A stretch of 22,385 nt of DNA from a virus, in the IMG/VR virus record IMGVR_UViG_3300032288_000196, positions 1-22,385 of that record; one strand, given 5' to 3'. Below the pieces are notes generated by a model. That model was not told where the DNA came from and searched no databases. It saw only the letters and a program-made list of their open reading frames with translations. Shown here piece after piece: positions 1,555 through 22,385 of this stretch (positions within the stretch are counted from its first letter, which is position 1; each line of letters starts with the position of its first letter). Both the position numbers and the translations under genes were made by a program.

Positions 1555-1555
1555 T

Positions 1556-4279
1556 TCAGAAAGAGCCACCAGCCACACCACCAGTAATCTGGCCCGTGCT
1601 GGGATTGCAGGTTATCGATGAGTTTACCAATTGAGGCAGGTTTCCTGTAGTGGTGGAAACGAACGTCAGGTAGTGCGTTGCATTGGTCGTGCTTGCCGTG
1701 ATGGCGGTGTTGGTTGCGTTGGTCGCAGAACCGACCGACAGTGTGCTTTGATCTACATACTGCGGCGCAGAAGCACCTGCGGTCAGCACCTGCCCGCTTG
1801 TTCCAAGAGCCAACTTGCTCAAGGTGGTCGTTGCAGATGCGTACAGCAGATCACCCGCCGTATAGGTGGTCAGGTTCGTACCACCATACGCCACGCCAAT
1901 GGTCGTTGCGTTCCACACGCCAGCAGTAAGTGTTCCGACCCCGGTAATGCCGGTGTAAGAGCCACTCACTCGGGCAGAGTCAATCGTTCCAGTAGTGATC
2001 TGGCTTGCGTCAATCGCAATCGATGTGTTGGTGACGCTGGTCAACTGCCCTTGCGCATTGACCGCAAAGACCGGCACAGACGAGGCCGAGCCATAAGTGC
2101 TTGCCGACACCCCTGTGTTGGTGATGCTGAACTGAGAACCCGTCAGGGTCAGGCCCGTGCCTGCGGTGTAAGTTCCCGCACCAGAGAACTGCTGCCAAAC
2201 AATCGGGTCGGTGCCAACTGTCGTTACAGGCTCAATCTGCACCCACCCCGTATCGCCGTACAAAGTGCCGTTGGAGATGAACGTGAAGTCGCCACTTGCG
2301 ATTTCTGTTGCGGTATCAAAGTCAGTTGCTCTGGTAAGAACCGTCCCGCCGGTTGCCCAGGTGTAGATACCATTGTTCGCCTGGGTGGCCTCATTCTTGA
2401 CAAGAACTCGGTCGCCGTTTTGCAGCGTGTAACCGTCCAGCGTAGTCAACGCCACCGACAGGGTAAGAGTCGCACCGACCCCCAACGTGCCGTTGTTGTA
2501 GGTCACAGTCCCGCCGGTCAGCGAAGCCAAAGTGTTGGGTGTAGCCGCAGCGCAGGATGCATGGACATGAAGACCCTCTGCCACCGCATCCACATACTGC
2601 TTGGTGGCCAGTTGCAGAGCCGATGTTGGGTCTTGCGTCACCGCCACCGAGGTCAGACCGCCCAGAGTCAGGCTTGAACCACCCAACGAAATAGCAGTCG
2701 TCCCGATGGTCACCGATGAGTTATCAAGCGCCGCATTCGGGATGTTGCTCAGAGTGTTGGTCGCCCCGCTGATCGCCTTGTTGGTCAGCGTCTGCGAACC
2801 CGTAAGGGTGGCCACAGTGCTGTCAATGCCAAGCGTCTTGGCGGTCGATCCGTCAAACGTGGTGCCAGAGTTGAACTGCAAACCCGTCCCAGCGGTCAGC
2901 GCGGCTGTGGTGGTGGCAGTAATCGTCCCCGATGCTCCCAAGGCCACAGTAACCCCATTGAAGGTCACACTTGAATTGGTCAGGCTTGAGTTGGCAATGT
3001 TCGAGAACGTATTGAGCGACCCAGACATTGTCTTGTTAGTCAAGGTCTGCGTACCCGTCAACGTGGCAACGGTAGAGTCAATGGCAATAGTGACTGGTGT
3101 TGACCCGTCGTAACTTGTGCCAGACAACCCCGTGCTGATTGTCAAAGCATTAGGGTTTGCGGCTGTAATGGTTCCGCTGGCCCCCAGAGCAACATTGACC
3201 CCGTTGTAGGTCACAGAAGAATTCGTTAAGGACGAATTCCCAATGTTGCTCAAAGTGTTGTTAGACCCGCTGATCGTTTTGTTTGTCAGCGTTTCCGAGC
3301 CAGCCAGCGTTGCCAAAGTTCCGCTGGTGGGCAGCGTGACATTGGTCGAGCCAGTGGTAGTCAAAGTCAGGGCAAAAGCACCAGAAGTCGTAAAAGACCC
3401 AGCGGTGCTGATATTCCCACCTAGCGTGGTGGTGTATGAGCCGTTGTTGACACCCGTACCGCCGCTTGCTGGGTTCAAAATTCCAGCAAGCGTGACCACC
3501 CCAGATGTTGCCGTGGAGGGGGTAAAACCAGTAGACCCGGCGCTAAAGCTTGTGACCCCACCGGCCAAAGAAAACTGCCGCCAAGACCCAGCAGCGTAGC
3601 CGTCAAAGGTCTGAGTATCCGTGTTGAAGCGAAACTGCCCGTTTGATCCGGCTGGCTGCTGTGCGGTATTGCCAAGAGGAATGGTGACCGCAGAAGTGCC
3701 AGGAATCACTGGATTGGAGGCCAAAGAGATGGTCGGATTGCCGCCAGAGCCATTGCCATTGGCCACATCGATCTGGCTTGCGGTTCCCGCGATCAGAACC
3801 CCGCCTGCCGTGGTGCCGCTTTGGATCGCCAGCAGGCCAGTGCCGCCCACCTGGGCAATGTTGGAAATCAACCCACTCAGGGCTATCGTGGGATCACCAG
3901 ACACCCCAGACCCATTGGTAATACTCAGACCGGTGCCAGAAACCGCAATAGATCGGCCTGTAACAGTTGATGCGCCCGTCTTGACCACAACCCCCGTGGA
4001 GGCCGCCTCAAGGCTCCCAGAGGCCCCATTTAGGGTCACCTGAAGGGTAGACTGCGCCCCGCCGTCAATAAGCCCAATTCCAGTGCCTCCAGCAAGCGCC
4101 CTGCTGTTGTTGAGCGTGGGCTCCTGATTGACCGTCAGGAAGGTCTGGGTCTGGACGGGTGACCCCGCAAGGGCCGCTGTCGTGGTGCGAAGGGTCTGCC
4201 CGCCCTGAACAATTGGGACAAGCTCATCGCCCTGAATCGGGCCTGCCGCAGGCAGTTGGGTAATGGTTACGTTCGGCAT
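1556..4279 (-). CDS. Large repetitive tail fibre protein (907 aa)
   Basis: Gly/Ser/Thr/Ala-rich fibre of beta-repeat type. Residues 1-41 ([26 protein letters not shown]) form an N-terminal anchor shared with the 333-residue tail protein at 6115-7116. The middle holds units of 82 and 85 residues beginning TLTNK and a third partial copy. Residues about 554-697 contain [28 protein letters not shown] and [13 protein letters not shown], a segment widely seen in phage fibres. The C-terminus has [19 protein letters not shown] and ends abruptly in [16 protein letters not shown]. Start: ATG 4279 immediately follows the stop of the zinc-ribbon gene (TGATATG). A TTG at 4306 would add nine residues before the conserved MPN motif and is rejected. 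The ribosome site is weak, which suggests coupling to the upstream gene. Likely role: adsorption. The short C-terminus directly before a homing endonuclease could mean that the original end was lost. Confidence 0.88.
2660..3292 (-). repeat. Tandem in-frame repeats in the fibre (82- and 85-residue units plus a partial unit)
   Basis: Unit 1 (3292-3047) encodes [20 protein letters not shown] and continues through [12 protein letters not shown]. Unit 2 (3046-2792) encodes [20 protein letters not shown] and continues through [11 protein letters not shown]. Unit 3 starts at 2791 ([20 protein letters not shown]) and loses similarity after about 40 residues. The spacing is 246 and 255 bases, so the frame is kept. 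The first unit is preceded by a similar LATLAGSE segment, and the later ones by VATLTG(T/S)Q. Confidence 0.9.
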
Positions 4280-4280
4280 A

Positions 4281-4625
4281 TCAGGGCTGGATTTCCAAAC
4301 CGTCAAGGTTGCCGTTGTTTTCCGGCGTGTCTATGTTCTGCTCGGGAGACAGCACGGCACCGCCGTATGCCTCACCAGCACTCAGATTGTTGGGGTCAAG
4401 AGCAACCGAAACGTCCGGCCTTGGAAACCGAATCGTTATCCTTTCGGTTTTTCTGGCGGGTAGTCGGTACGGGTCAAAGTTGTCGGCGCACCCCTGATTG
4501 CAGACTTGCAACCCCGGAAAGTTGGGGTCAGACCGCATCTCCGCATGGGGGCGCTTCATCTTGCACCGATCGCATACTGCGATTGCGATGTCCGAGTAGC
4601 CCAGTGTGTCGAGGAAGATCGGCAT
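4281..4625 (-). CDS. Small zinc-ribbon-like phage protein (114 aa)
   Basis: A 114-residue protein with CDRCKMKRP near residues 18-26 and VCNQGC at about 41-46, a four-Cys pattern (CxxC ... CxxxC) typical of small zinc ribbons. It is followed by [11 protein letters not shown] and FPRPDV, which recur in conserved small phage proteins beside neck and tail genes. The tail half is acidic and probably flexible. ATG 4625 has GAGGTG five bases upstream and follows the stop of the adaptor-like gene by three bases. The start of the large fibre follows its own stop directly. The precise function is unknown. A structural or assembly role is inferred only from position. Confidence 0.8.
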
Positions 4626-5710: not shown

Positions 5711-6115
5711 TCACCATCCGGGGCAATTCCAACGCTTCATGGAGGCGCGAGATCGGCTGCCCTTCTCGCTCTTTTCTGCAATTGCACCCATTCTGGCGCA
5801 AAAGGAGTCCCTCCGGGAGCCTCCTTGCGGCTGCGGTGCCTTCAGGTTTGACCCAGTCTCTCGGTTGTACTTCTCTCTGCCTTTGGCTGTCAAGCCAGCG
5901 CCGCGCTCCACAGGCATTTTTTCGCCTCGGCCCACAGCAAGAGATACCCCGCCGCCCTTCATGCGCTCTGGCAGGGCGCTGTATGCTTTCTTGCCCTTGT
6001 TTGCTTGGGTGTACTCAGCAGCAACGCTCTGCTTGATGCCCACCTTCTTGGCGAACTTGGGGTTGTTTTCTGCCGCCTTCATCAGGCGAAATTGAGCTTG
6101 TGATTTTGGTGGCAT
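5711..6115 (-). CDS. Small basic phage protein with conserved GLTAKGREKYNRETGSNLKAP motif (134 aa)
   Basis: Start chosen at ATG 6115, which overlaps the stop of the upstream tail gene (TAATG), with AGGTG upstream. Longer in-frame extensions read through that gene and lack conservation. The N-terminus MPPKSQAQFRLMKAAENNP and KVGIKQSVAAEYTQ look like a 'PKSKAQ' small-protein family. Residues 53-72 hold a GG(G)-containing, KKGG-like stretch. Residues 73-109 hold GLTAKGREKYNRETGSNLKAP followed by SRRDSFCARM, a short motif I know from many phage and some giant-virus proteins of unknown function (DUF6321-like, from memory). The protein is strongly basic, with no membrane segment. Nothing else in the window shares the RRDSFCARM motif. 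The function is unknown. The position among tail genes suggests a virion component or assembly factor. Confidence 0.8.
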   Translation of the reverse strand: MPPKSQAQFRLMKAAENNPKFAKKVGIKQSVAAEYTQANKGKKAYSALPERMKGGGVSLAVGRGEKMPVERGAGLTAKGREKYNRETGSNLKAPQPQGGSRRDSFCARMGAIAEKSEKGSRSRASMKRWNCPGW

Positions 6116-7116
6116 TACGACACCTGATTGACGGTAAGAATCATTGCAGGGGCCGCTGGATACAGCGGGCTGGCGCTTGCCGGATAAGTCACAATCGAGC
6201 CGTGACCATCTGTGGACAGCCACCTCATGGTGACCTTGTCATTGGCGTTGAGCGACAAAAACACATTAGCAGCCATCAACGCAGAGGCCGGTGTCGTTTC
6301 ATTCTCACGCGAGGCAATGGTCACCCGACTAGCCGAGTTGGCCACATCAACCCCATTGACGGCAAACCAGATCGTTACCAAAGTCTGCCCAGCGGTCGAA
6401 TTGTTCAACTGGCCGCTGAATGCAAAGTTGTATTTTCCGCTGATAGCAACCTCAACCTCACTAGTTGCGGTATCAAGCGTCACCCCATTGCTCAAGTCTT
6501 GGGTGTTTAACTGCAACAGAGTGGGCGTGTTAGCCACAGCTACTTGAGCGCCGTTGACTGATGCTCCAGAAGTGTGAGACTTGTTGGGCGAACCAGCAGC
6601 GCCGCGAGTGCATCCGGTGAAAGATGTGGCGGTGATTCCAGTGTAAGTAATCAACTCGGCATCGATGAAAATTGCGCCAGTAGACGAAAACCCGCTAGTC
6701 GTCACCACCGGAATTGTGGTCTGAGTGTTGGTTATGTTGCCGCTCAGTGTGGTGCTGAAATCGTAAAAAAATGATCCGTACTGGGTGTTGATATCAGACG
6801 GATCAAGCAACTCCCAAGATGGGGCAGCAGAGACAGAACCAGTACCAGTCTGAGCCAAAAACTTCTTGGTCGTGGTCGTGTTTCCGGCCAGTTTCGCAAG
6901 AGTGTCTGTAGCCGATGCATACAACGTATCGCCCAGCGTATACGAGGTGATGTTTGTGCCGCCCTGGGTTGTCAGGACAGGATTAACATCAAGCACTTGC
7001 GACACATAGTCTGCCGTGGTGACCTGCTTGTTGAGGCCAGACTGAACAATCGGGGTAATCTCGGTTCCATCTAGCGTAGCCGCCGAGGGCATCGCAGAGA
7101 TTTTGGTATCTGGCAT
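6115..7116 (-). CDS. Tail fibre-like protein with C-terminal C1q/TNF-like jelly-roll domain (333 aa)
   Basis: Residues 1-40 (MPDTKISAMPSAATLDGTEI, TPIVQSG) are the same anchor type as in the 907-residue fibre. Residues 52-78 (GGTNITSYTLGDTLYASAT) also match that fibre near its C-terminus. Residues 147-187 (IDAELITYTGITATSFTGC then TRGAAGS..KSHTSGASV) are a tail-protein motif seen in many phages. Residues about 215-330 (SGKYNFAFSGQL, TIWFAVNGVDV, LSLNANDKVTMRW) have the strand pattern of a C1q-like trimeric jelly roll. ATG 7116 overlaps the previous stop (TGATG), with GGAGG seven bases upstream. It probably forms a short trimeric spike or fibre tip on the virion. The C1q-like call rests on pattern only. 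Confidence 0.8.
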   Translation of the reverse strand: MPDTKISAMPSAATLDGTEITPIVQSGLNKQVTTADYVSQVLDVNPVLTTQGGTNITSYTLGDTLYASATDTLAKLAGNTTTTKKFLAQTGTGSVSAAPSWELLDPSDINTQYGSFFYDFSTTLSGNITNTQTTIPVVTTSGFSSTGAIFIDAELITYTGITATSFTGCTRGAAGSPNKSHTSGASVNGAQVAVANTPTLLQLNTQDLSNGVTLDTATSEVEVAISGKYNFAFSGQLNNSTAGQTLVTIWFAVNGVDVANSASRVTIASRENETTPASALMAANVFLSLNANDKVTMRWLSTDGHGSIVTYPASASPLYPAAPAMILTVNQVS

Positions 7117-7698: not shown

Positions 7699-8928
7699 TC
7701 AGCACTTCACAGCACCGCCGCGCTTTTTGGCTGGCTCCACCGTTACAGATTTCTCTGTTTGGGTAACGCTGCCAACAGGCTTTGCACCAGCGTCCCGCAA
7801 AGCTTTGCGCTCTGCCTCGGTCATGCTACCCTGACCCTCAAAAGCCTTTTGCAAGAATTTGCGCTCTGACTCACTCACAGAGCCTTGGCCAAAGAGGCTT
7901 TTGGCCCCCTCATAAATTCGGCTTGGAATTGACCGAATTTTTTTGGCCATATCAATCTCTTCCTTGCTCGGGCCAATCGACTTGTCATAAGCGCCCTTGG
8001 ACAGATCAACCATGCCGCCTTCGTTCATCTTCTTGCCGTACTTGCTGTAGACCTCATTGGAGTACGCCTTGGCCTGTTTCATGGCCGTAGCGTTTTCCTG
8101 CTTGAAGTTTTTCTGCAAGCGACCTTGAGCAGCAGTAACACTGCCGCCTTTCTTGAAGGTGCCAGAAAGCTGATTGATGCTTACCGGGGTGCTTGGCGTT
8201 TTGCGACCTTGAGGCATCGCCACGGGACGACCGGTATCAACAAGTCCCCCCGTGGCGTAGGCTTTTTTTGCGGCACCACCTTTGCGGTAGCCACCAGCAT
8301 TTGCCTTCGCCACACCACCAGTTGCATAGCCACCGCCATTGCCCAGCTTCACCCCGCCGGTTTTGGCCGGGGAGTTGTCTGGGGTTGCAGTGTGCATCAG
8401 GGTGTCACGGTACTTGCCGCCTTGGTTCTCGGTGTTGATGATGCCGCTTTTAGCCAGCCCGCCCTCGGCGTAGCATGAACTATCGTCGGCCATCTTCACC
8501 TTGCCGCCCTTTTTGTAACCGCCTTGACCCATGACCACACCACCGGTCTTCAAGCCCTTGTGGGCCTTGGACGCTGGTTTGTCGGCGTGTGCCTTCAGGT
8601 CTTTGGCGGTCTTGGCCATCTTTTCCATCTCTGCTTTGTGTTCAGATTTGGTTTCGCCGCCTTCCTTCATCACACGGCTGGCCATGCCAACAGGTGCTGC
8701 GGGGCCAGCACCGGCGGGCATTGCTCGCATCGCACGACGACGGGCAGCAATAGATGGCCGCATAGGAGCGGCAACGGGAGCCATACCACCGCGAGCAGGC
8801 ATTGCAGGAGTTGCAGCGGACATACCGCCCATCTGCATCTTCTTCTCTACCTTGCCACCTTTTTTGAGCTTCAGTTCAACTGAAGGCTCAGTGGTCATCA
8901 TTTTGACCATCGGTTTGAATTGGCCCAT
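7699..8928 (-). CDS. KKGG-motif-rich basic protein (409 aa), unknown function
   Basis: A very basic, Gly/Lys/Ala-rich protein built largely of short motifs: KKGGKV (22-27), KTGGVV (128), YKKGGKV (138), YAEGGLA (153), KTGGVK (189), YATGGVA (201), YRKGGAA (214), YATGGLV (224), FKKGGSV (258), NEGGMV (302) and RGGAVKC at the C-terminus. Residues 30-80 are Met/Ala/Pro-rich. Residues 345-380 contain an 18-residue tandem repeat (FGQGSVSESERKFLQKA / FEGQGSMTEAERKALRDA). No enzyme motif is seen. Similar GG-containing motifs separate the modules of the 1844-residue protein. ATG 8928 has GAGGT seven bases upstream. The location after the capsid genes suggests a virion or internal head protein. DNA binding is plausible from its charge but unproven. 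Confidence 0.8.
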   Translation of the reverse strand: MGQFKPMVKMMTTEPSVELKLKKGGKVEKKMQMGGMSAATPAMPARGGMAPVAAPMRPSIAARRRAMRAMPAGAGPAAPVGMASRVMKEGGETKSEHKAEMEKMAKTAKDLKAHADKPASKAHKGLKTGGVVMGQGGYKKGGKVKMADDSSCYAEGGLAKSGIINTENQGGKYRDTLMHTATPDNSPAKTGGVKLGNGGGYATGGVAKANAGGYRKGGAAKKAYATGGLVDTGRPVAMPQGRKTPSTPVSINQLSGTFKKGGSVTAAQGRLQKNFKQENATAMKQAKAYSNEVYSKYGKKMNEGGMVDLSKGAYDKSIGPSKEEIDMAKKIRSIPSRIYEGAKSLFGQGSVSESERKFLQKAFEGQGSMTEAERKALRDAGAKPVGSVTQTEKSVTVEPAKKRGGAVKC

Positions 8929-11493: not shown

Positions 11494-12447
11494 TTAGCTC
11501 CTTTTGTTTCGTGCTTCTTGGGCGTAGCGTTTAATCATCCGACTGCGTTTTTGGGGGTCATCCCAAAAACCGGCCTCCTTCATTGCTCGAACCTGTTCGG
11601 GCTCAAGAACGAATTCGTTGCCGCTGCCGCGTCCGGCTGATTCACGACTCGACCCAGTCACAAAGCTTCGAGGGCTCCTTCTGGACGTACTTTCGTCTTG
11701 TGTTCGAGTATAGCGGTGTGGCAATCTCTTTTGCAAGCGATTGTCAAGCTCATCCCAATAATCTTGTGTTGCTGGATCCCAACCCTCGGAAACCAGCCGG
11801 TTGTCAATGACCTTGGCAATCGCAGAATCCTCGTCCCCAGAGTCTGGGCTATACCAAGAATTCCTCTCCATCCAGTCATTGGCGAGCTTGACCAACTTGG
11901 GGTTGGCCGGGGCGCTCTCCTGATTATTGGACTTGGCCACCTTTTCCTTGTAGGTCTGCATCGCCTCAAGCTTACGGCGACTGTCGTACCACATCTCTTG
12001 GGCCTTGGTAAATGCAGCACCGTCCGAGTTATCGGTGGCCTCCTGCATCTTTCGCTGGGCATATTGCAGGCGGTATCCCTCGTCCTCAATAGCCTTCTCA
12101 AAGCGAGCCAAATCAGCCCCGTGGGTCTTGCGCTCCACCACGGACAGGCGCTCCATCAACTCCCGGTTCTGGCGCTCCAGAAGTTGCAGTTTGGCGTCCT
12201 TTTCCTCGTTGGTGCGCTTGATGTATTCCTTCTTGGCTCGGCGTCGGTTTCGCCGTGCCTCTCGGATAGCGTCGGTGTCGTCGGGGTGATCCTCGTCGCC
12301 ACCATCGTCCTGCGGCTCTGGGTTGCTGTCCTGATCCTTGGAATCATCCTCTGCCATATCGGCAGGGAGTTGGACAACGGCAGAGCCGTCCTTCTCTTCA
12401 ACGACCGCAATTTCTTCGGTCTGGTCTTGTGTTTTGTCTGTAGTCAC
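11494..12447 (-). CDS. Putative scaffolding protein (317 aa)
   Basis: Highly charged: residues 1-60 are very acidic (VEEKDGSAVV, DMAEDDSKDQDSNPEPQDD, GGDEDHPDDTD). A basic/helical stretch follows (REARRNRRRAKKEYIKR), then a coiled coil (LQLLERQNRELMERLSVVER) and helices to about residue 170. The C-terminus is basic (DDPQKRSRMIKRYAQEARNK). This acidic, coiled-coil, basic-tail layout and the place upstream of the capsid gene are the usual signs of an internal scaffold, whose basic tail binds the shell. No sequence signature proves it. The start is GTG 12447, overlapping the GroES stop as GTGA, with GAGGG upstream, so it is translationally coupled to GroES. Confidence 0.75.
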   Translation of the reverse strand: MTTDKTQDQTEEIAVVEEKDGSAVVQLPADMAEDDSKDQDSNPEPQDDGGDEDHPDDTDAIREARRNRRRAKKEYIKRTNEEKDAKLQLLERQNRELMERLSVVERKTHGADLARFEKAIEDEGYRLQYAQRKMQEATDNSDGAAFTKAQEMWYDSRRKLEAMQTYKEKVAKSNNQESAPANPKLVKLANDWMERNSWYSPDSGDEDSAIAKVIDNRLVSEGWDPATQDYWDELDNRLQKRLPHRYTRTQDESTSRRSPRSFVTGSSRESAGRGSGNEFVLEPEQVRAMKEAGFWDDPQKRSRMIKRYAQEARNKRS

Positions 12448-12881
12448 AGGAATGCCCTCATTGCAAGTGGATCACCAGTGAGTTTTGCAATCACTTCGTG
12501 ATCGTTCAGAACCATGAACAGTGCCGGATCTTCAAAATCGTCATCGCCGGGGACTTTGACTTCCCAGCGATCACCGCCCCACTTGGGGACGCGGATGTAG
12601 TCGCCTACAGAACACCAAGACCCCTCTGGCCATGCCTGCATCGTGTCTCGATGCTTGAATGCCAGCGGACCGATCTCGACGACCTTGGCCACCATGTTCT
12701 GCCACTTCTCGGTTTCTTTGGTTTCTTCAACCAAAATAATCCCTGCGCTTGTTGCCTTCTTTTTTGTGCGGCGCAACTGAACCAAAATGCGCCCGCCAAG
12801 AGGTTTTGCACCGGGGTCTACGCTCGGAAATGCCCAAGCTAACTCAGCTTCGTCAAAAGCTACCGGCTCACTCATGTTCAT
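12444..12881 (-). CDS. GroES-like co-chaperonin (10 kDa chaperonin family, 145 aa)
   Basis: Residues 26-136 read as a GroES fold: KPLGGRILVQLRR, mobile loop KKKATSAGIILVEETKETEK with the hydrophobic I48-I49-L50 that docks on GroEL, AKVVEIGPLAF, VGDYIRVPKWGG, WEVKV, and a C-terminal LFMVLNDHEVIAKLTGD ending. The bacterial protein is about 95 residues. The extra length is a 25-residue N-terminal extension, an insertion near WPEGSW, and a short tail. Phage co-chaperonins (T4 gp31 and relatives) cap host GroEL to fold capsid protein. Here the gene lies between portal and scaffold, directly coupled to the scaffold (GTGA). ATG 12881 is used; an ATG two codons later (12875) is equally possible. The start overlaps the 61-residue gene. 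Confidence 0.88.
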   Translation of the reverse strand: MNMSEPVAFDEAELAWAFPSVDPGAKPLGGRILVQLRRTKKKATSAGIILVEETKETEKWQNMVAKVVEIGPLAFKHRDTMQAWPEGSWCSVGDYIRVPKWGGDRWEVKVPGDDDFEDPALFMVLNDHEVIAKLTGDPLAMRAFL

Positions 12882-13053: not shown

Positions 13054-13202
13054 TTTTTCTTCGCTTGTTGCAGACCTCCTTGGGGTTTCGGGCTTGATTG
13101 ACCCTTGGGTTGCATGCTCGAGCCATCAAGCTTCTCGCCCATAGCGATGCGCTTGTGCTGGGGCACGTTGATACTGCGTTGCTCTTGGTCACTGGTCGCC
13201 AT
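13050..13202 (-). CDS. Very small basic protein downstream of portal (50 aa)
   Basis: An open frame of 50 codons, MATSDQEQRSINVPQHKRIA then MGEKLDGSSMQPKGQSSPKP and QGGLQQAKKK, too short for usual ORF cut-offs. AAGGAGG (13208-13214) stands five bases before ATG 13202, the best ribosome site type in the window. The start overlaps the portal 3' end by 14 bases, and the stop overlaps the next ATG (ATGA). It is polar, basic and probably disordered, with no domain recognised. The perfect ribosome site and the gapless tiling are the evidence that it is expressed. Confidence 0.7.
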   Translation of the reverse strand: MATSDQEQRSINVPQHKRIAMGEKLDGSSMQPKGQSSPKPQGGLQQAKKK

Positions 13203-15726
13203 ATTGGCCTCCTTGGGGTTGTACAGCCTTTACCTGCTCAAAATTGAGCTTGGCAGCATCTCGCGTTAGGCGGGCTGTTTCGATGCGCTCTTTCATCTCG
13301 TTGTCGCCTTGGGCAATCGCCAGCTTCAACTCCATCTCTTCCATCTCTCGCTGCTGGCGCTGTTGCAACTCTTGCATGTCCATTTGAATCTTGGCCGCAA
13401 GCTCCTGATCCTTGAGTTGCATCTCGGCCTGATCCCTGGCCTGTCTGCGCTGAGTCTCTGCCATACTGGTCTGGAGCAGAACCTGCGCATCAGGCGGCAA
13501 CTGGGGCTGCTGCTTGAACTGCTGCAAGTTCTGCATCAGTTGCTGGACGATTGGCAAAATGCCTTGCAGGGTCTGCTCTGCGTCCATCTCCACATGCTGC
13601 GATGCAGCACCAAACATGCGGTCGATAACCTTTGGATCGTTGTGCAGCTCGTATTCGGGCACCTTGCCGCCGACCGCCTTCTGGACGTACCCGTTCATGC
13701 GGTTGAGATACCACAGGACTATGTGCTGCTTGATGTGTTCAATCGCCTTGGGCAGGTACGCCGGGGCGATCATGGGGTTTGACCCGAAAATCGGGCTCTT
13801 GGCAAAGTCCAAATGGGCTTGAATGTGGCCCAGGTGATCCTGCTCAGGGTATGCAAAGGCCGCCTGCCCGATGGCCAGGGCCACGTTCTCGTTGGCGGCG
13901 TCCATCTTCACCGGAGCCGGTACATCGGTCATCAATTCGTTGATACCGGGCACCTTGATCTGTTTTAGGAACTTTTGAATTACAGCTCGTCGGTTAAATA
14001 GGTCAGGATTCTTCTCCATGACGGCCATAACCGCCTGGGTTTGGGCCATCCGCTGGGTTTCGCTGAAAATGTGCGGGTCGGAAACAGGGATCACATCCGT
14101 GACCCGCATAAAGTCCTCCCGCTTGATGTCCAAGTCCTCAACCACCTCGCCGCGCTGCATATCGTCCAGATACCAGCGGTTGATCCTGCTCAAAACCTTG
14201 AGCATTCGGCCCTGAGACTCATGCAATCTGGCGTGGATGGACGAGAAAACGGCTGCGCCCTGCTCAATCAGGGCTTGAGTGGTGCCAACAGGCGTGTTCT
14301 GCCCCACATCAGCGATTTTTTCCTCGGCGGTGGTCACTACCCCCTTGGCCGCGTTGGTCAACCACCCCAAAAGCTCAAAAAGCACCTGCGAAGGGGGGTT
14401 GAAAGGCATGGGCATAGCCAGCTTTCGCACATCATCAACCCCCGGAGCGCCCTCAATCTCGACCACCTGGGTGACTTCAATCTCCTGAGACTGCCCAGAA
14501 ATCTTGCCGCCCTTGAGTTTTAAGAGCGTTGCAGCGTTGTTGATGTGGGCAGAGTCCAGCAAGGCCCTCAAAGAGCCCGTAAGGGCCGCAGAAAGCCCTC
14601 CAATAAGCTGCGGCAGGCCCACAGCGTATGCGCCACGCCAGGGAATGAACTTGAACTCAATGACCCAGTCCAATTTGGTCATTGTGTCGTCGCCTTCTTC
14701 CCAATTTCGGTACAGCCCAAGCACCTCGGAGGACAAATCATCCACCATGAGGATGTACGGGGCGCTTTCGCCCTTGGTAATCGGGTCATCCTCAAGCTCG
14801 AGCCATGTGTAGATGTGGAAAACCCGGCGCAGACCGTCCTCATTCTCGTTTTGGGACTTGCCCTCAATCTTGTTGGTCGCCTTTTGGGATGCCGTAGGCT
14901 CAGGATCCATCGTGGCGCTGGTCAGACTCGTCTCTCTGTACAGGCCAGATGCAATTCGGCGCTTAAATTCCCACTCGGAGATGTCATCAACCTCGGTAAA
15001 TCGCTGCGCGGTGTAGAAATTGGCCGATGCAAAGGGCAAAAGCACGTTGTCAATGGGCAGAAACTGCGCACAGGGGCGCTTTTTCTTCTCGTCGTACCAG
15101 AGTTTGAGGTACTGAGAACCACCCAACGGCAACTGAGTGAGCATCTGCTCCTGCTCATCGCGGAACTCTTCGATCTGCTCGGTCAACTGCCAGTTCATGT
15201 AGTCGCGTTTGCGCTCTGCAATGGCGGTTTTTTCCTCATTTACATCGCCCAAAATCTTGGTTTTGGTCGGCCCGTCAGGCGGGAACAGTTCTTTAATGGC
15301 TCGAGACGCAAAATCAATGCAAGCCTCGGCCATAACTGGGTGGACAACCTTGGAAGCGCCCTGAAAGTTGGCCCCTCCTGGCGCATCATTGCCCATGCCG
15401 GTGCGCTTGATGCCGTCTTCGTACTGCTTGTCCCGCTGCTTGCGAGCCTCTTTGTCTTTTTCGACCAGTTCGATGTACCGCAGGGCTAGTCGGTCAAGGT
15501 CAATCTCGCTGATGATGTCGCCATCGGCAAGGTTGGCGTAGAAGTCTTGGTCTTCCATCGGCCCCTTGCTGTCCATGCGAACGATTGCCGAGCCATCAGG
15601 TAGCTCTTCAATCTCTGCCTCTTCTGCTGGCAGGTCAACAATGACCCCCTCTTCATCGTCCTGATCCTGCGGTTCACCGCCGATAAAACGACCAAATTCG
15701 GGATCAATGGGAAATTGTGTAGCCAT
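13189..15726 (-). CDS. Portal protein (845 aa, P22-like large portal)
   Basis: After an acidic N-terminal arm (1-60), residues about 70-115 read LALRYIELVEKDKEARKQRD, QYEDGIKRTGMG and GASKVVHPVMAEACIDFASR, then AIKELFPPDGP. This is typical of the large portal family of podoviruses that pair with big terminases. Later come MLTQLPLGGSQYLKLWYDEK, FLPIDNVLLPF, WRGAYAVGLPQLIGGLSAAL and VTDVIPVSDPHIFS. Residues about 715-830 form a long Gln/Glu/Met-rich coiled coil (QQRQQREMEEMELKLAIAQ), like the barrel-type C-terminal helix of P22-like portals. The length (845) also fits a barrel-bearing portal. It makes the dodecameric DNA channel and packaging motor base. ATG 15726 has AAGG upstream and follows the 1844-residue gene by three bases. 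Confidence 0.88.
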   Translation of the reverse strand: MATQFPIDPEFGRFIGGEPQDQDDEEGVIVDLPAEEAEIEELPDGSAIVRMDSKGPMEDQDFYANLADGDIISEIDLDRLALRYIELVEKDKEARKQRDKQYEDGIKRTGMGNDAPGGANFQGASKVVHPVMAEACIDFASRAIKELFPPDGPTKTKILGDVNEEKTAIAERKRDYMNWQLTEQIEEFRDEQEQMLTQLPLGGSQYLKLWYDEKKKRPCAQFLPIDNVLLPFASANFYTAQRFTEVDDISEWEFKRRIASGLYRETSLTSATMDPEPTASQKATNKIEGKSQNENEDGLRRVFHIYTWLELEDDPITKGESAPYILMVDDLSSEVLGLYRNWEEGDDTMTKLDWVIEFKFIPWRGAYAVGLPQLIGGLSAALTGSLRALLDSAHINNAATLLKLKGGKISGQSQEIEVTQVVEIEGAPGVDDVRKLAMPMPFNPPSQVLFELLGWLTNAAKGVVTTAEEKIADVGQNTPVGTTQALIEQGAAVFSSIHARLHESQGRMLKVLSRINRWYLDDMQRGEVVEDLDIKREDFMRVTDVIPVSDPHIFSETQRMAQTQAVMAVMEKNPDLFNRRAVIQKFLKQIKVPGINELMTDVPAPVKMDAANENVALAIGQAAFAYPEQDHLGHIQAHLDFAKSPIFGSNPMIAPAYLPKAIEHIKQHIVLWYLNRMNGYVQKAVGGKVPEYELHNDPKVIDRMFGAASQHVEMDAEQTLQGILPIVQQLMQNLQQFKQQPQLPPDAQVLLQTSMAETQRRQARDQAEMQLKDQELAAKIQMDMQELQQRQQREMEEMELKLAIAQGDNEMKERIETARLTRDAAKLNFEQVKAVQPQGGQYGDQ
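13208..13214 (-). promoter_or_regulatory. Ribosome binding site (AAGGAGG) of the 50-residue gene, inside the portal gene
   Basis: A full seven-base anti-16S complement, with a five-base spacer to ATG 13202, embedded in the last codons of the portal. It decides the start of the tiny gene. Confidence 0.8.
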
Positions 15727-15729
15727 AGG

Positions 15730-18700
15730 TCAAACCTTTTCGATTGCAGACAGAGCGCCCACAGCGCCGCCCTTTTTCTTGCCGGTATATTCTTTCATCA
15801 ATTCCTCGTACATCTTTATTTCTTCGATGTGCTGCGGGTCAACCATTTGTCGCGGTGTTGCGGTTTGATAGACGCGAGTTACATCTTGAGGACGATAATT
15901 TTCCTTGATAAATGCGGCGACATCTGGAAACTCTATTTCAGCAGGTGTCGGATATCTTGTCCTCGTAATCGGTGAGCCTGGGAAAATTGGTATGGTGTGA
16001 CTGTATGTCGGATGAGCAGACAACGTCAGATTGATCGGATCAATACTTGGATCAAGCCGCATCTGCGACAGGCCCGATGTCAGAATCTCCATATCGCGCA
16101 CTTCAGGCTCTGTGATGGCATGAAGGATCACCCGTCCATCTGGCAAATTCAGCGGCTTGGTGTACTCCGGCTTTTGCATCAATGCGTTGAAATACTTCCT
16201 CAACTCTGGGTCAACCGAAAAGGCAAGGTAGGCATCCAATTTGTCCTCAATGCCGGGGAATGTGGGGCGCGGGCCTGACTTTTCTGAACCCTTGCGGATA
16301 AGCTCGTTGAACTGATCAATCTGGCTTCTGCTCATCTTGCTCAGGTCGATTGCCTGAAGGTTGGCGTCAGCAAAATGCATGGCAAAGTTGGTGCCCTGCG
16401 GCCCCATCGCCACGAACTGCCCCAGCACAGGCGCACCCTGATTGGCATCGGAAAGCTCTTGCACCCGCTTCTGGAAGGTTGCTGCAACTGGGTTATTGGA
16501 TGCCCAGGCTCCTTCACCGCCGAGGGCGAACAAAGGCCCTCCGCGCTGCGGGGAGGGCAGTTCAAGCGTGTATGGGCCAGCCCTGTGCAAAACCTTGTCG
16601 GCTATTGATGTGTCGCCAGAGATGCCGATCTTGAGCATCCCCAATTGCTTCTCAATGTCAGCCTGGGTCTGCGGCAGCAGCTTCTTGCCCTTCTCGGGCC
16701 TGATGTCATGGGTCAGCCCCTTTTCCATCTCAAACCGCTCGCGGGACTTGCCCGCTGGGTTGATTGACTTCTTCGGGTTGGGGCGAACGAACTCGCCGGT
16801 CATCTGCTCGGCCATGCGCTGCGCAACTGGTCTGATTTCTTCTTTGGTCTTGGGCGCTGCCCTCGGAAGATTGAGGGGCAAAGATGGCTCTGCTGCCGCC
16901 TTGGCTCCTCTGCGCAGTATGCCGCCCACGCCCATCTCAACCTCGCCACCTGCTTTCATGCCATCCGCTGAATCTAAACCAAGTTTTTTTCTCCAAAGTT
17001 CGTAAACACTTGGATGAACATCTTTTAGACCAGACTTTTCACCAAACTGCAAAAGCTCTTGCGACGTGTAATAACCAGGAGAAATTGTTGGCACATTGCC
17101 ATGCGCTTTCAATCGCATCCATTCTTCAAAGCCCGGTATGTCTGATCCTTCCCCCACTTTTTGCAAACCAGTATTTTTCAAATCCCCCACATCAGACCAC
17201 TGACCGCTGCGCACGAAGTCTTGCACGAAGGGCAGGTACTCTTCTTTGGGGGCGCGGTTCTGCTTGCCTTTGATTTGAACGATGCGAGGAGGCGCGTTTT
17301 CTTTCGCCATCCTGACCGCAATATCTTCAATGTCTTGACTCGTATAACCACTAGGCAGTTGCTTTGCCTCTTCCTCTGCCGCAACCATGTATCTTTGAAC
17401 GTCAGCGTGTCTCGGTGCCCAATTGGGCTTTTGCACCTCCACCGTCACATGAGGCTCACCCTTGGCATCACGCAGGCTGTAGATGCGGCTGCGGCCTTCC
17501 ATGACGTCAGGGCAGTAGCCACCGACGCAGTGGCCCATCGTGTCGCCTTCGTACTTGAGGGCATCGGCAAGTATTTGCTCTCGCTCTTGACGTTTATACA
17601 GTCTCAAGGCCTCAGCCTCAGAAGCCCCAGTGCTGACCGCATTCCCCTTGTCATCGAACATGGTGTACAGCTCGTTGCCAGGATTTCTGTAGTTTGCTTG
17701 ATCGGGGAGAATTGAGAAGCCTTCTGGCAATTTAGACTCTGGCGTCGCCAACTCAATCCACCGATACCCCTCCGGATACTCCCTGTAGACCGGCATGCCC
17801 TCGGTGGCCTTGATCTGCGCCTCGCGCATCCGCTTGGCCATTTCTTGGTCGAACTCGGCGGTGCGGCGTACTGCCTGCTCCATGCTGACCTTGCTCAACT
17901 GCTCTGGGCGAATGCGGCCAGCGTCTAGGTCTTGCTTGAGAACGTCAACGATGTGGTCAAAGCCGAGATCTCGTGCCATGCTTTGAGATTGCATCGGAAC
18001 GATTGTATGAACGCGAGTAAATGGATCAACCTTCTCCATCCAAGGTTCAGGCAAACCAATGTTAACCAATTTGCCAACTGTTCCAAATCCGATTGGATTG
18101 TCAGCCGTCGCCTCCCACACCTGAGCCTGGCGCGATGTTCCTTCCGATTTTGGGAATCCAGCCTCTTCTCTTTTTGCCCAAACACTGCTCATGTTTCTGG
18201 GCATTGGCGTTCCTTCGGGCAGATGAGAAATTCCCTCCTCTGCCAACCTCCGCACCGGATCGTCCGATGTGGCCATCTGCTTCTTGACGTAGTTGGTCAG
18301 GTTGCGGTCGATCCAGCGGTTCAATGCACGGTTTGGATCTGACTTGTCAAAATTAGCAACGCGAGCGAGGATGTCTTCTTCCGCAACATTCATCCTGCGC
18401 AAAGTGCGGGCGATATCTGCATCCGACTGAGCAGGAATTTTGAGCGGTTCAAGCGCCTTCTCCACGCTGCCCGTCAGCCAGTTGCCGCCAGCGGGCTTGA
18501 TCACGTTGACAGCAGGCTGACCAGCCGCCTGGACGAAGTCCCTGCCAGCCTTGGCAACCGCGCCAGGAAGCGCACCAGCGAGCCTCAGAGGCGCTCCAGG
18601 GCCGGTGTAGAAGCCCCCAGCCAGTTGCCCTAAACCAGAGGCAAACTGCGCCGTCGGCGTCTCTGATCTGAGCGGCAGGCGCTTTTCAATGTCGCTGCTG

Positions 18701-21264
18701 GTCGGTAGCGTGGTCTTCTCGTCAAACCCCGGCAGCATCCGAACGATAGACTCTATGTCTCCAGGCGCACCAAGGACACCAGAGACAACGCCTCGAGCAA
18801 CATCAACAGGCATCCTTGCGGCAGCCTCTCGGTCTTGCCTTGATCGACGGGGCTTCATCTGCGGGAATACGCCGAAAGCGGCCTTCTCTTCAACCTCGCC
18901 GCCCTTCTTAAATGAATCAAGCTCAGGCTGGAATGGGTCTTTCTTTGCCGGTTTGACGATGATCTCCTCTGGAAGGACATCGTAACTGGCATATGGAAAC
19001 TCATTTGCCCTTTGGCTTGCCGTCATTCCCTCGCGGAACTGAGTGGCGCGGGCCTCGGCCTCACCAGCAAGACGCCGGTAGTATTCCATTGCGGCTTGCT
19101 GTTGAAATTCTCTGTCAAATTTAGCAATCTCTTTTGGGATTCTTTTTAAATAATTTTCATAACCCTCTTTTACTATCGACTGATCGACTTCATCGAAATT
19201 TTTTGAGGGATTGGACTGCATCAATTGTTCGACATATTCGTCATATGTCATTGGCTTTGCAGCCCTAGCACGAATCTCATCGAGTATCTTGTAAGCCTCT
19301 GGGTTGTTGAAGGCCGTAAAGGTGTTGCCGCCCGGAGCCATGTCTTCAACAGTCTGGACGGCGTGTTGCATCTCATGGAGCATGCTTGACCGAGGATCGC
19401 CGCGCAGACCCTTTTGGGTAACTTCCATCTCCATGTCGCGCTTGCCCCCACGCAAGGCCGCACTCTCAGATCCAATTCCCCGTCCACCCTGATAGACCTT
19501 TATGTCGGCTAATTCTGGATATGCCCTGTACAACTCGGGATGCTCCAGCACGAACTTGGCGCTCTGCCCCCGGACATCGGAATAGCGGCCAAGCTCGTCG
19601 GCCTCTTCCTTCAGGCGCTTGACTTGCTCGCGGGCAGGCCTCCTAGCCTCAGTCAGCGCCTTGGGGAACATATCCTTCTGGCCGGGGATGCCTTTGATTT
19701 GTTGCTGAAGATCAAGAGCTTCCTGCTTCCTCTGCTTGCCCAACTCCTTGAGGTCTGCCGGGTTGCGGTAAATCGCCCCGACATCGCTGATCTCCTGACG
19801 CAGGATGCCGTCAGCGCCACGGAAGGTGCCGGTCTGACGCCAGATTTCGGCAGGATCTCGACCCTCTTGCTCCATACGAACTGCGGCGTCTGCCTTGGCT
19901 TGATCCCAAGTCTTGGCCTTCGGGCCGATGAACATTCGGGGAGCGCCCTGCGGCGCAGCCATCACGAAATCCTGACCCGCTTTGACTACCGCCCTCGGAA
20001 CAGCCATTGCGGCCCTAGCACCAGAAAACGGCCCGGTGTATGCGCCACCCGCCAACTGACCGGCAGTCGTGAAGACTTGACCCGCTGGTGTCTGGCTCGC
20101 CCCTCGCAGGGGCAGGCGCTTCTCGATGTCCTCGGATGTCGGCAGGATGGTTGGGGAGTCTTTGCCGGAAATCAACTCATACGGCAGGCGGGCGATAGAC
20201 TCGATGTCCCCAGGCAGACCCAGCGTACCCGACACCAGACCACGGGCAACAGCCACGGGGATGCCTGCCGATGCCTCGCGGTTCTGCTGCGACTCCGGTC
20301 TGCGACCAGCGCGGCGGTAGCCGATGTAGGGCTTGCTCTCGACCTTGCCGCCGTCTGCCTTGTGGACTTCGCCGCCCTCGGCGTAGATGTCAGGCAAAAC
20401 GATGGCAGAACCTGTGCCCCCCTCAGGCATGACCAAGTTGCCAGTCAAGTCCAGTTCATTGCGCAACGCCTGGATGTACTCTTCCTGAGTGCGGCGCGGG
20501 AATGGCTCACGCAACTCAGCGCGGGGAACCAGTCGAACCAAACTTGTGGGCTGACCAGAAGCGGCTAGGGCGCGGCTGCGATGTCGCCCCTCATGGCCAG
20601 AAATAAACGGCTTGAGCGGCAGGCCGAACTCTTCCTTGTCAATGCTCAGAAACGGAACATCATCAAAGCCTTCAGGCAATCCGCGAAGGTACTTGATGTA
20701 CTCATCAGTAGGTAGCGTGTACTTGTCGATTTCACCCTTATTTGCCAGCTCTGCCATCTTGGGGCCAATGTCAGCCCTAGTGCGTGCGCTGAGTCCCTTG
20801 GCGTACTTCTCAAAGTCCGCAGGGTTCATGGTCATCAAAGCCTGAGCGTTGTCACCAGTAAAGGCAGAGCGAAGCCCTTCTTCCTTGTACATCCGTTCAA
20901 GATTGGGAATTTCATCGGCGGCACGCTCAACGCGCCGAGCGCCGTAGTCGCCCTTGCTCTGACGCACAGCCTCTTTGACGCTGCTCAACTTGCTGGGGAC
21001 AATGACCGCTGGGGCTTTGCCGCCCCCCAGCATCCTCTCAAGGTTAGCCCGATGCTCTGCCGCAGGCGCAACCTCTTGTGTGCCCTTCAGGGCTTTGGCA
21101 GCCTTCTTGAGCAGGCCACCAGCGGCGTACTTGTCAACCCTCTTGTTCCAGACATCCTCACGGCCATGAAAGCTCTTGGGAACCGCACCGCCGGATTTGG
21201 CCCACTCTTGGAGAGCCTTTGCGTCTGCAAATGGCTGCGCACCCTTTTTGCCAGCATTAGCCAT
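15730..21264 (-). CDS. Giant modular polyvalent protein (1844 aa), likely packaged/injected
   Basis: One uninterrupted frame of about 5.5 kb between the small post-terminase genes and the portal. Modules in order: an N-terminal region; GHEGRHRSRALAASG (223-237), ParB-like in appearance; linker YAEGGEV (294); repeat module A (311-436); a helical region; SSMLHEMQHAVQ with HExxH at 630-634, like the LPD23 domain of phage polyvalent proteins; linker FKKGGEV (785); repeat module B (799-916); YEGDTMGHCVGGYCPDV (1238-1254) with IYSLRDAKG and HVTVEV, PcfJ-like; linker MKAGGEV (1436); an unrecognised C-terminal block (1460-1820); KKKGGAV near the end. No signal peptide or membrane segment is obvious. 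Such proteins are thought to be delivered with DNA and to act early on the host. That is inference here. The start ATG 21264 overlaps the previous gene by eight bases and has AAGGA upstream. Confidence 0.82.
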   Translation of the reverse strand: MANAGKKGAQPFADAKALQEWAKSGGAVPKSFHGREDVWNKRVDKYAAGGLLKKAAKALKGTQEVAPAAEHRANLERMLGGGKAPAVIVPSKLSSVKEAVRQSKGDYGARRVERAADEIPNLERMYKEEGLRSAFTGDNAQALMTMNPADFEKYAKGLSARTRADIGPKMAELANKGEIDKYTLPTDEYIKYLRGLPEGFDDVPFLSIDKEEFGLPLKPFISGHEGRHRSRALAASGQPTSLVRLVPRAELREPFPRRTQEEYIQALRNELDLTGNLVMPEGGTGSAIVLPDIYAEGGEVHKADGGKVESKPYIGYRRAGRRPESQQNREASAGIPVAVARGLVSGTLGLPGDIESIARLPYELISGKDSPTILPTSEDIEKRLPLRGASQTPAGQVFTTAGQLAGGAYTGPFSGARAAMAVPRAVVKAGQDFVMAAPQGAPRMFIGPKAKTWDQAKADAAVRMEQEGRDPAEIWRQTGTFRGADGILRQEISDVGAIYRNPADLKELGKQRKQEALDLQQQIKGIPGQKDMFPKALTEARRPAREQVKRLKEEADELGRYSDVRGQSAKFVLEHPELYRAYPELADIKVYQGGRGIGSESAALRGGKRDMEMEVTQKGLRGDPRSSMLHEMQHAVQTVEDMAPGGNTFTAFNNPEAYKILDEIRARAAKPMTYDEYVEQLMQSNPSKNFDEVDQSIVKEGYENYLKRIPKEIAKFDREFQQQAAMEYYRRLAGEAEARATQFREGMTASQRANEFPYASYDVLPEEIIVKPAKKDPFQPELDSFKKGGEVEEKAAFGVFPQMKPRRSRQDREAAARMPVDVARGVVSGVLGAPGDIESIVRMLPGFDEKTTLPTSSDIEKRLPLRSETPTAQFASGLGQLAGGFYTGPGAPLRLAGALPGAVAKAGRDFVQAAGQPAVNVIKPAGGNWLTGSVEKALEPLKIPAQSDADIARTLRRMNVAEEDILARVANFDKSDPNRALNRWIDRNLTNYVKKQMATSDDPVRRLAEEGISHLPEGTPMPRNMSSVWAKREEAGFPKSEGTSRQAQVWEATADNPIGFGTVGKLVNIGLPEPWMEKVDPFTRVHTIVPMQSQSMARDLGFDHIVDVLKQDLDAGRIRPEQLSKVSMEQAVRRTAEFDQEMAKRMREAQIKATEGMPVYREYPEGYRWIELATPESKLPEGFSILPDQANYRNPGNELYTMFDDKGNAVSTGASEAEALRLYKRQEREQILADALKYEGDTMGHCVGGYCPDVMEGRSRIYSLRDAKGEPHVTVEVQKPNWAPRHADVQRYMVAAEEEAKQLPSGYTSQDIEDIAVRMAKENAPPRIVQIKGKQNRAPKEEYLPFVQDFVRSGQWSDVGDLKNTGLQKVGEGSDIPGFEEWMRLKAHGNVPTISPGYYTSQELLQFGEKSGLKDVHPSVYELWRKKLGLDSADGMKAGGEVEMGVGGILRRGAKAAAEPSLPLNLPRAAPKTKEEIRPVAQRMAEQMTGEFVRPNPKKSINPAGKSRERFEMEKGLTHDIRPEKGKKLLPQTQADIEKQLGMLKIGISGDTSIADKVLHRAGPYTLELPSPQRGGPLFALGGEGAWASNNPVAATFQKRVQELSDANQGAPVLGQFVAMGPQGTNFAMHFADANLQAIDLSKMSRSQIDQFNELIRKGSEKSGPRPTFPGIEDKLDAYLAFSVDPELRKYFNALMQKPEYTKPLNLPDGRVILHAITEPEVRDMEILTSGLSQMRLDPSIDPINLTLSAHPTYSHTIPIFPGSPITRTRYPTPAEIEFPDVAAFIKENYRPQDVTRVYQTATPRQMVDPQHIEEIKMYEELMKEYTGKKKGGAVGALSAIEKV
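18517..18870 (-). repeat. Module B of the internal duplication (residues 799-916)
   Basis: It reads RRSRQDREAAARMPVDVARG, VVSGVLGAPGDIESIVRM, LPTSSDIEKRLPLRS, GLGQLAGGFYTGPGAPLRLA and AVAKAGRDFVQAAG. It is clearly the partner of module A (see next entry), with the same order of blocks. Confidence 0.88.
19960..20337 (-). repeat. Module A of the internal duplication (residues 311-436)
   Basis: It reads YRRAGRRPESQQNREASAGI, VARGLVSGTLGLPGDIESIA, LPTSEDIEKRLPLRG, TAGQLAGGAYTGPFSGARAA and VVKAGQDFVMAAPQ. It matches module B block for block (PGDIESI, LPTS.DIEKRLPLR, GQLAGG.YTGP, KAG.DFV.AA). The hydrophobic Ala/Gly-rich part could be an amphipathic or membrane-interacting helix. Confidence 0.88.
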
Positions 21265-22029: not shown

Positions 22030-22036
22030 CCTCCTT
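22030..22036 (-). promoter_or_regulatory. Ribosome binding site (AAGGAGG) overlapping the terminase stop
   Basis: A full-strength site with a four-base spacer to ATG 22025. It overlaps the TAA of the terminase, so the downstream gene is probably translated by ribosomes finishing the terminase. Confidence 0.8.
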
Positions 22037-22385
22037 AAATGGCGTAAGGGTTTACCCTGCGCTGTCTGCCGGTGTCGGCGTAGTCGTCCTCATCCCAATC
22101 TTCCTGCGGCGGCGGGTCGATCTCGAGCCACCCGGCATCGCGCAGATACCGCAGCGCCTGGGTACAGGCGTCGACGTAATCGTCATGCGTTGTCTCTGGG
22201 AACGAGCAGATCTGGCTCACGAAGCCCTCGGCCCAGTCCTTGACGTAACCCTTCCTAGCGTCCGACTCCGGTATCCAGACGCGCCCACGGGCAATGATGT
22301 TCGAGACGATGTTTAGGCGCTGCACCTTGTCGGCCCGCCCTGGGTTGTAGGCTCGCACAGGCAGATGCGCCCGCTGTAGGTCTTG
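22035..22385 (-). CDS. Terminase large subunit, C-terminal 116 residues (runs off right edge)
   Basis: The open frame continues to the right edge: QDLQRAHLPVRAYNPGRADK, VQRLNIVSNIIARGRVWIP, then ICSFPETTHDDYVDACTQAL and RYLRDAGWLEIDPP. The order 'K..R.......G.V..P......FP...HDD.VDA...A......' is the end of the terminase nuclease domain, and the final HDDYVDA supplies the third acidic metal ligand. The ATPase and most nuclease residues are outside the window. The acidic/aromatic tail (EDWDEDDYADTG, then RRVNPYAI) could be the portal-binding end. The true start is not visible. An internal GTG at 22358 is only where a frame-finder would begin. It cuts and translocates DNA into the prohead through the portal encoded downstream. 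Confidence 0.88.
   Translation of the reverse strand, partial: QDLQRAHLPVRAYNPGRADKVQRLNIVSNIIARGRVWIPESDARKGYVKDWAEGFVSQICSFPETTHDDYVDACTQALRYLRDAGWLEIDPPPQEDWDEDDYADTGRQRRVNPYAI

What the first reader, a model, noticed from the sequence alone, without database searches (positions are those of the whole stretch)
15730..21264. An 1844-residue multi-domain protein in the packaging-portal interval
The sequence shows one intact 5.5-kb frame with at least four different elements (GHEGRHR, HEMQH, PcfJ-like MGHCVGGYC, unrecognised C-terminal block) joined by GG-containing linkers. Polyvalent proteins of phages and conjugative elements are known to collect such domains and to act early in the recipient cell. 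This combination and order, placed before the portal, is not one I know. It may be an injected anti-host or anti-defence effector. That function is inference.
Basis: partly seen in the sequence, partly recalled or inferred. Interest (0 to 1): 0.82.

Follow-up and report, generated by a model that had tools for sequence, protein, structure and literature searches.

The report
Punctuated phage polyvalent effector-cargo protein
A freshwater-type phage carries, in a fixed slot between its DNA-packaging motor gene and its portal gene, one giant protein assembled from swappable enzyme-like units separated by a short 'GGxV' mark; it is a new, unusually orderly form of the known phage 'polyvalent' proteins that are thought to be injected into the host with the DNA.

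Summary
One intact 1844-codon frame lies on the minus strand (15730-21264), has a ribosome-binding site, and ends 3 bp before the portal gene. It belongs to the phage polyvalent proteins (Iyer et al. 2017).

In 142 non-redundant IMG/VR loci the same slot, TerL-[cargo]-portal, holds 57 different module orders; the window's order occurs only here. The slot is empty in cultured Caulobacter phage RW and Planktothrix phage Pag-Yong1, so the cargo is accessory.

The GG linkers are punctuation. A strict GGx[V/I] motif occurs in 129/162 junctions between units (14 expected) and 0/209 within units. Homology breakpoints cluster at it. Module A is a portable leader before PcfJ, metallopeptidase, ART and other domains.

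Best reading: an optional, virion-delivered multi-effector protein built from exchangeable leader-enzyme-GGxV units. Injection and enzymatic activity are inferred, not shown. Fold searches hint that PcfJ is GNAT-like and D1 sulfiredoxin/ParB-like; both are weak. Verdict: new variant of a known kind.

The parts
15730..21264 (-). 1844-aa polyvalent protein (whole ORF)
21118..21264 (-). N-terminal mini-unit (res 1-49), ends KYAAGG; recurs near the N-terminus of many relatives (cluster 8, 39 loci)
20377..21042 (-). D1 domain (res 75-296), HEGRHR strictly conserved; weak sulfiredoxin/Osa fold match
20341..20376 (-). GGEV...GGKV unit boundary (res 297-308)
19930..20343 (-). module A, copy 1 (res 308-445), portable leader
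19777..19935 (-). LPD23 (Pfam PF18838, hit at res 444-494)
18910..19776 (-). zincin-type metallopeptidase-like domain (res 497-785); HEMQH 630-634, GEAEAR 734-739
18880..18909 (-). KKGGEV unit boundary (res 786-795)
18475..18852 (-). module A, copy 2 (res 805-930)
18025..18474 (-). N-terminal part of the PcfJ unit (res 931-1080)
16957..18024 (-). PcfJ domain (res 1081-1436), MGHCVGGYC 1243-1251; weak but consistent GNAT-fold matches
16915..16956 (-). KAGGEV...GG unit boundary (res 1437-1450)
15772..16752 (-). CT domain (res 1505-1831), no Pfam family; also a solo gene in other phages
15733..15771 (-). C-terminal tail GGAVGALSAIEKV (res 1832-1844)
13189..15726 (-). portal gene bordering the slot downstream
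   Evidence: (phrog_1216)
22035..22385 (-). C-terminal part of TerL bordering the slot upstream
12444..12881 (-). GroES-like gene, part of the conserved order TerL-cargo-portal-GroES-scaffold-MCP

Best explanation
It is an accessory, most likely virion-packaged polyvalent effector protein of a podovirus-like phage. It is a string of four exchangeable units: D1; leader A + LPD23-metallopeptidase; leader A + PcfJ; CT. Each unit ends in a GGx[V/I] mark. Shown: the gene sits in a fixed slot between TerL and portal; slot content is reshuffled between phages at GGxV marks and at the C-end of leader A; the slot can be empty. Inferred: made late with virion proteins, packaged, ejected with the DNA, and acting early in the host. 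The HEXXH unit would cleave host proteins or trim the chain; PcfJ may be an acyltransferase-like protein modifier; D1 may be a ParB/sulfiredoxin-type nucleotide or nucleic-acid enzyme. GGxV acts as a flexible hinge or a processing point that lets units work separately; leader A acts as a docking or translocation segment.
For: Pfam LPD23 and PcfJ above cut-off; conserved HEXXH plus GEAEAR with predicted strands and helices in zincin order. Slot: in 142 non-redundant loci the cargo is directly upstream of portal in 102/102 (gap <200 bp in 94) and downstream of TerL in 130/130. 57 collapsed module orders in 146 complete ORFs. Punctuation: 129/162 between-unit junctions against 0/209 within-unit. 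Breakpoints within 15 aa of the motif 32% vs 5.4% expected. Leader A: 105 unique copies before PcfJ 73, metallopeptidase 14, ART-like ~8, others; N-terminal in its ORF in 65. Empty slots in phage RW and Pag-Yong1; other cargo in the slot of DSL-LC04 (PcfJ) and MW202545 (ART-like + GP88); MW202675 joins CT + GGAV + InPase (no TerL or portal annotated next to it in the stretch shown).
Against: No proteomics shows it in virions. No catalytic activity is demonstrated. D1 gave no profile match to ParB, and the fold matches are below significance. A separate 'DNA transfer protein' is annotated in relative DSL-LC04, so this need not be an ejection protein. The within/between split was set after the first look at the junctions, so its contrast is partly post hoc.
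Confidence: 0.68

Rival explanations
1. A polyprotein: GGx[V/I] is a protease recognition site and the chain is cut into D1, metallopeptidase, PcfJ and CT products during assembly or after entry, as double-glycine sites are in some eukaryotic viruses (own knowledge) and as zincin processing was proposed for polyvalent proteins.
For: Motif at most unit boundaries and within 30 aa of the C-terminus in 109/198 ORFs; the same units occur as separate genes in relatives; Iyer et al. propose processing (PMC5512222).
Against: No dedicated peptidase found; motif density is the same with or without the HEXXH domain (2.6 vs 2.2 per 1000 aa), so that domain is not the general cutter. No cleavage data.
Confidence: 0.3
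2. GGx[V/I] and leader A are encapsidation or scaffold-docking peptides, one per ancestral virion protein, and fusion of genes left internal copies.
For: The window's 409-aa protein (7699-8928) and MW202675's 382-aa protein (7 copies) in the capsid gene region carry many copies; slot proteins of pelagiphage HTVC027P carry ADGGRIGY-type copies; A is N-terminal in 65 of 105.
Against: The motif is rare in capsid, portal and scaffold (0-0.7 per 1000 aa), so no obvious binding partner; no binding data.
Confidence: 0.35
3. GG stretches are only flexible linkers, neutral apart from spacing, that also mark places where recombination is tolerated.
For: Glycine-rich linkers commonly join domains (own knowledge); breakpoints cluster there.
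Against: Strong position-specific preference (x then V/I; K or A before) and 129/162 vs 14 expected from the same stretches shuffled; also at C-termini where no linker is needed.
Confidence: 0.25
4. A structural head or portal accessory protein rather than an effector.
For: Invariable position beside portal.
Against: Slot empty in two cultured relatives with the same portal family; content varies freely; several domains are enzyme-like.
Confidence: 0.1

Closest known systems
Phage polyvalent proteins (Iyer et al. 2017, PMC5512222), e.g. P1 DdrB, N4 virion RNAP, ART/InPase/MPTase fusions
   Same: Large multidomain protein beside virion genes; LPD23, HEXXH domain, relatives with ART-PolyVal and InPase
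   Different: Fixed TerL-portal slot; regular GGxV marks between units; repeated portable leader A; D1 and CT have no Pfam family, and PcfJ is not mentioned in that paper's main text (0 occurrences)
PcfJ-like protein of Phage DSL-LC04 (OR003939) and 'PcfJ-like protein' of uncultured Caudovirales phage (e.g. A0A6J5KNR3)
   Same: Same PcfJ unit; in DSL-LC04 the same slot between TerL and portal
   Different: One main unit (825 aa in DSL-LC04) instead of four; leader A not detected in DSL-LC04
MW202675 (Manatee Spring phage) CT protein
   Same: CT domain followed by GGAV
   Different: Followed by a polyvalent InPase domain; in the 12.9-kb stretch shown no TerL or portal is annotated next to it
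Caulobacter phage RW and relatives
   Same: Same portal family (46.5% identity) and gene order with GroES
   Different: No cargo gene between TerL and portal (empty slot, tRNA-Val only)

Membership tests
Phage polyvalent proteins | Two or more disparate domains, including known polyvalent-protein domains, in one polypeptide | tested here: met
   LPD23 and PcfJ above Pfam cut-offs plus HEXXH domain, D1, CT
Phage polyvalent proteins | Gene in the vicinity of late/virion genes | tested here: met
   Between TerL and portal in window and relatives
Phage polyvalent proteins | Packaged in virion and delivered to host | not testable with these tools
   No proteomics available
Zincin-like MPTase of polyvalent proteins | HEXXH helix after a three-stranded sheet and a second helix with a conserved Glu | tested here: met
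   Strands 589-594, 602-605, 612-616; helix 624-639 with invariant HEMQH; helix 733-744 with invariant GEAEAR. Zinc geometry not measured
Zincin-like MPTase of polyvalent proteins | Profile match to a peptidase family | tested here: inconclusive
   Window copy none; distant members match DUF6782 putative metallopeptidase 1.8e-7 and Peptidase_M78 1.4e-4
PcfJ (PF14284) | Match above curated cut-off | tested here: met
   30.2 bits vs 25; covers model positions 76-122 of 147
ParB/sulfiredoxin superfamily (D1) | Fold and profile match | tested here: inconclusive
   Foldseek top two 1xw3 (E 0.34) and 4ovb Osa (E 0.42); hhalign against 15 ParB sequences negative
GNAT acetyltransferase fold (PcfJ domain) | Fold match | tested here: inconclusive
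   Most of 50 VIA-align rows at about res 1143-1399 are GNAT-fold acyltransferases, Z 4.2-6.4, all below the reliable level; Foldseek best E 0.71
GNAT acetyltransferase fold (PcfJ domain) | Acetyl-CoA binding signature and activity | not tested
   -

The most novel reading that the evidence does not exclude
A widespread, exchangeable effector-cargo slot of aquatic podoviruses: cargo is written in a fixed grammar, leader A - enzyme - GGx[V/I], where A targets each enzyme into the virion or host and GGx[V/I] is cut or acts as the release mark, so that phages swap injected effectors as cassettes between TerL and portal.
Probability: 0.35. Interest if true: 0.85.

Novelty: new variant of a known kind. 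Interest (0 to 1): 0.62.

Why it matters
Polyvalent proteins were described as varied combinations of domains. Here comparison of relatives gives them syntax: a fixed address, unit boundaries visible in sequence, a portable leader, and natural empty-slot relatives in culture. That makes the open question of how injected multi-effector proteins are packaged and released directly testable, and gives a simple way to find candidate injected effectors: read whatever lies between leader A and GGxV in this slot. D1 and leader A gave no tblastn match in 50,697 phage records.

Tried and rejected
Metallopeptidase as general GGxV cutter: motif density does not depend on its presence. D1 as classical ParB by profile: no match. 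PDB sequence-profile searches for D1, CT, LPD23+MP and PcfJ: nothing convincing. CT resembles YTH domains at Z 5.0-5.5; too weak to use. ESAT-6-like hits for the helices at 500-600 are common helical hairpins; ignored. Module A as structured domain: copy 1 has pLDDT 28-45, copy 2 has moderately confident helices and then disorder; no fold claimed. Module-A and CT alignments were at first too diverse for pattern search; closer subsets worked. D1 in bacterial genomes: none; PcfJ-unit matches in beta-proteobacterial MAGs (Burkholderiales, Nitrosomonadales) only hint at host. Papers: no description of this slot, of PcfJ in phage virions, or of GGxV found. The HTVC027P infection transcriptome paper names neither slot gene gp41 nor gp42 in its main text.

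Full report
WHAT IS THERE. The window is a fragment of a virus record with all main genes on the minus strand. The finding is one ORF, 15730-21264 (minus), 1844 aa, ATG start with an upstream AAAGGA. It follows a few small ORFs after the TerL C-terminus (22035-22385) and ends 3 bp before the portal gene (13189-15726; phrog_1216, 9e-16), after which come GroES, a scaffold-like gene and a major capsid gene.

MODULES. Pfam finds LPD23 (444-494) and PcfJ (1235-1279), both above curated cut-offs, and nothing else above a cut-off. Comparison with relatives divides the protein into: N mini-unit 1-49; D1 75-296 with strictly conserved HEGRHR; module A copy 1, 308-445; LPD23 444-496; an HEMQH domain 497-785; module A copy 2, 805-930; PcfJ unit 931-1436; CT 1505-1831. 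Coding selection is clear: dN/dS against close relatives is 0.04-0.17 for D1, LPD23, the HEMQH domain, A copy 1 and CT, 0.11-0.27 for A copy 2 and 0.27-0.39 for PcfJ; the N-terminal part of the PcfJ unit is looser (0.55 in the one pair that could be computed).

SHUFFLING IN A FIXED SLOT. Searches of IMG/VR with the whole protein, module A and CT gave 214 loci, 142 of them non-redundant. These loci were fetched by cargo modules, so presence of cargo is by construction; its position is not. In all 102 with a portal gene the cargo lies upstream of it, in 94 with a gap under 200 bp, and in all 130 with TerL it lies downstream of TerL. Content differs: 146 complete cargo ORFs show 57 different collapsed module orders, using also ART (Pfam ART-PolyVal, 2.7e-14) and further unnamed modules. 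Some phages split the cargo into two overlapping ORFs. The window's order D1-A-LPD23/MP-A-PcfJ-CT occurs only in the window.

EMPTY SITES. The window's portal matches cultured Caulobacter phages at 46.5% identity over 91%. In phage RW, TerL is followed by a tRNA-Val and then portal, with no cargo gene. Planktothrix phage Pag-Yong1 has TerL and portal about 26 bp apart. DSL-LC04 has one PcfJ protein there, MW202545 an 890-aa protein with ART-like and GP88 matches, and pelagiphage HTVC027P two unassigned genes. So the cargo is optional for virion formation in this gene order. That these absences reflect loss or non-acquisition rather than cargo moved elsewhere was not tested.

PUNCTUATION. GGx[VI] occurs at 5.0 per 1000 aa in stretches outside modules and 0.04-0.27 inside A, PcfJ and the HEMQH domain; 492 strict motifs against 92 +/- 6 in shuffled proteins. 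It is present in 129 of 162 junctions between units, where shuffling the same stretches gives 14.0, and in 0 of 209 within-unit junctions (A to its enzyme, LPD23 to HEMQH domain, the two halves of the PcfJ unit), where 3.7 are expected. The within/between classes were defined after looking at the junction table, and between-unit stretches are longer (median 158 vs 40), so the shuffled expectation, not the raw contrast, is the fair test. Homology breakpoints between relatives fall within 15 aa of the motif in 32% of 694 cases against 5.4% expected; the next class is at the C-end of module A.

MODULE A. Of 105 unique copies, 73 precede PcfJ, 14 LPD23-metallopeptidase, about 8 an ART-like 'TVYHGSPHKF' domain (ART by resemblance; no Pfam match), and a few others; 65 stand at the N-terminus of their ORF, often as MADxxAAFGVFPQMKPRR; internal copies usually follow a GG mark. 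It has no Pfam or PHROG family and no match in the phage collection. AlphaFold gives copy 1 no structure (pLDDT 28-45) and copy 2 separate helices of moderate confidence followed by disorder. A conserved, weakly structured leader in front of different enzymes suggests a docking or translocation segment; this is inference.

STRUCTURE AND FUNCTION. D1, LPD23+HEMQH and CT are predicted with high confidence, PcfJ with fair confidence. The HEMQH domain has the zincin order: three strands, the HEXXH helix, a later helix with conserved GEAEAR, as described for polyvalent metallopeptidases (PMC5512222). D1's first two Foldseek rows are human sulfiredoxin and the plasmid protein Osa, both ParB/Srx superfamily, but at E 0.34 and 0.42, and a profile comparison with ParB failed. 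For PcfJ most VIA-align rows are GNAT-fold acyltransferases at Z 4.2-6.4: consistent in kind, weak in strength. CT has no usable match in solved structures; BFVD holds uncharacterised phage proteins of 419-472 residues with significant matches to this model.

MECHANISM. Most likely, following Iyer et al., the protein is packaged and delivered with the DNA, supplying several host-modifying activities at once. GGxV would be the hinge or cut point freeing the units. The HEXXH domain is unlikely to be the general cutter, since motif density is the same without it. Not shown: packaging, injection, cleavage, any activity.

NOVELTY. The class is known; the fixed slot, the junction grammar and the portable leader were not found in the papers searched, a limited library. 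I rate it a new variant of a known kind.

Noticed in passing
window 7699-8928 (-): 409-aa protein next to the capsid genes made largely of KGG/YAxGG repeats, the same short motif that punctuates the 1844-aa protein; MW202675 has a similar 382-aa protein (L061:7472-8620) with seven GGx[VI] copies.
   Followed up: partly
window 835-1581 (-): Protein resembling a GIY-YIG endonuclease (YIGKGHGRRAW), apparently lying between two tail-fibre-like genes that share repeats (1-831 and 1556-4306); judged by eye only.
   Followed up: no
window 5711-6223 (-): 170-aa protein with DUF6321 (2e-14) and an N-terminal part matching the N-termini of PHROG virion structural proteins; it also carries GG motifs.
   Followed up: no
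L265:5247-5627: In cultured Caulobacter phage RW a tRNA-Val gene occupies the place where relatives carry the cargo gene.
   Followed up: partly
L010:10057-12699: Widespread further cargo module 'FYSAVDETLANLKRNKGTG...HVEEIQSDW', no Pfam match for that part, in about 58 loci, often first in a second cargo gene.
   Followed up: partly
L219-L222: Best PcfJ-unit matches among bacterial genomes lie on contigs of aquatic beta-/gammaproteobacterial MAGs (Burkholderiales, Nitrosomonadales, Chromatiales), a weak hint at host.
   Followed up: no
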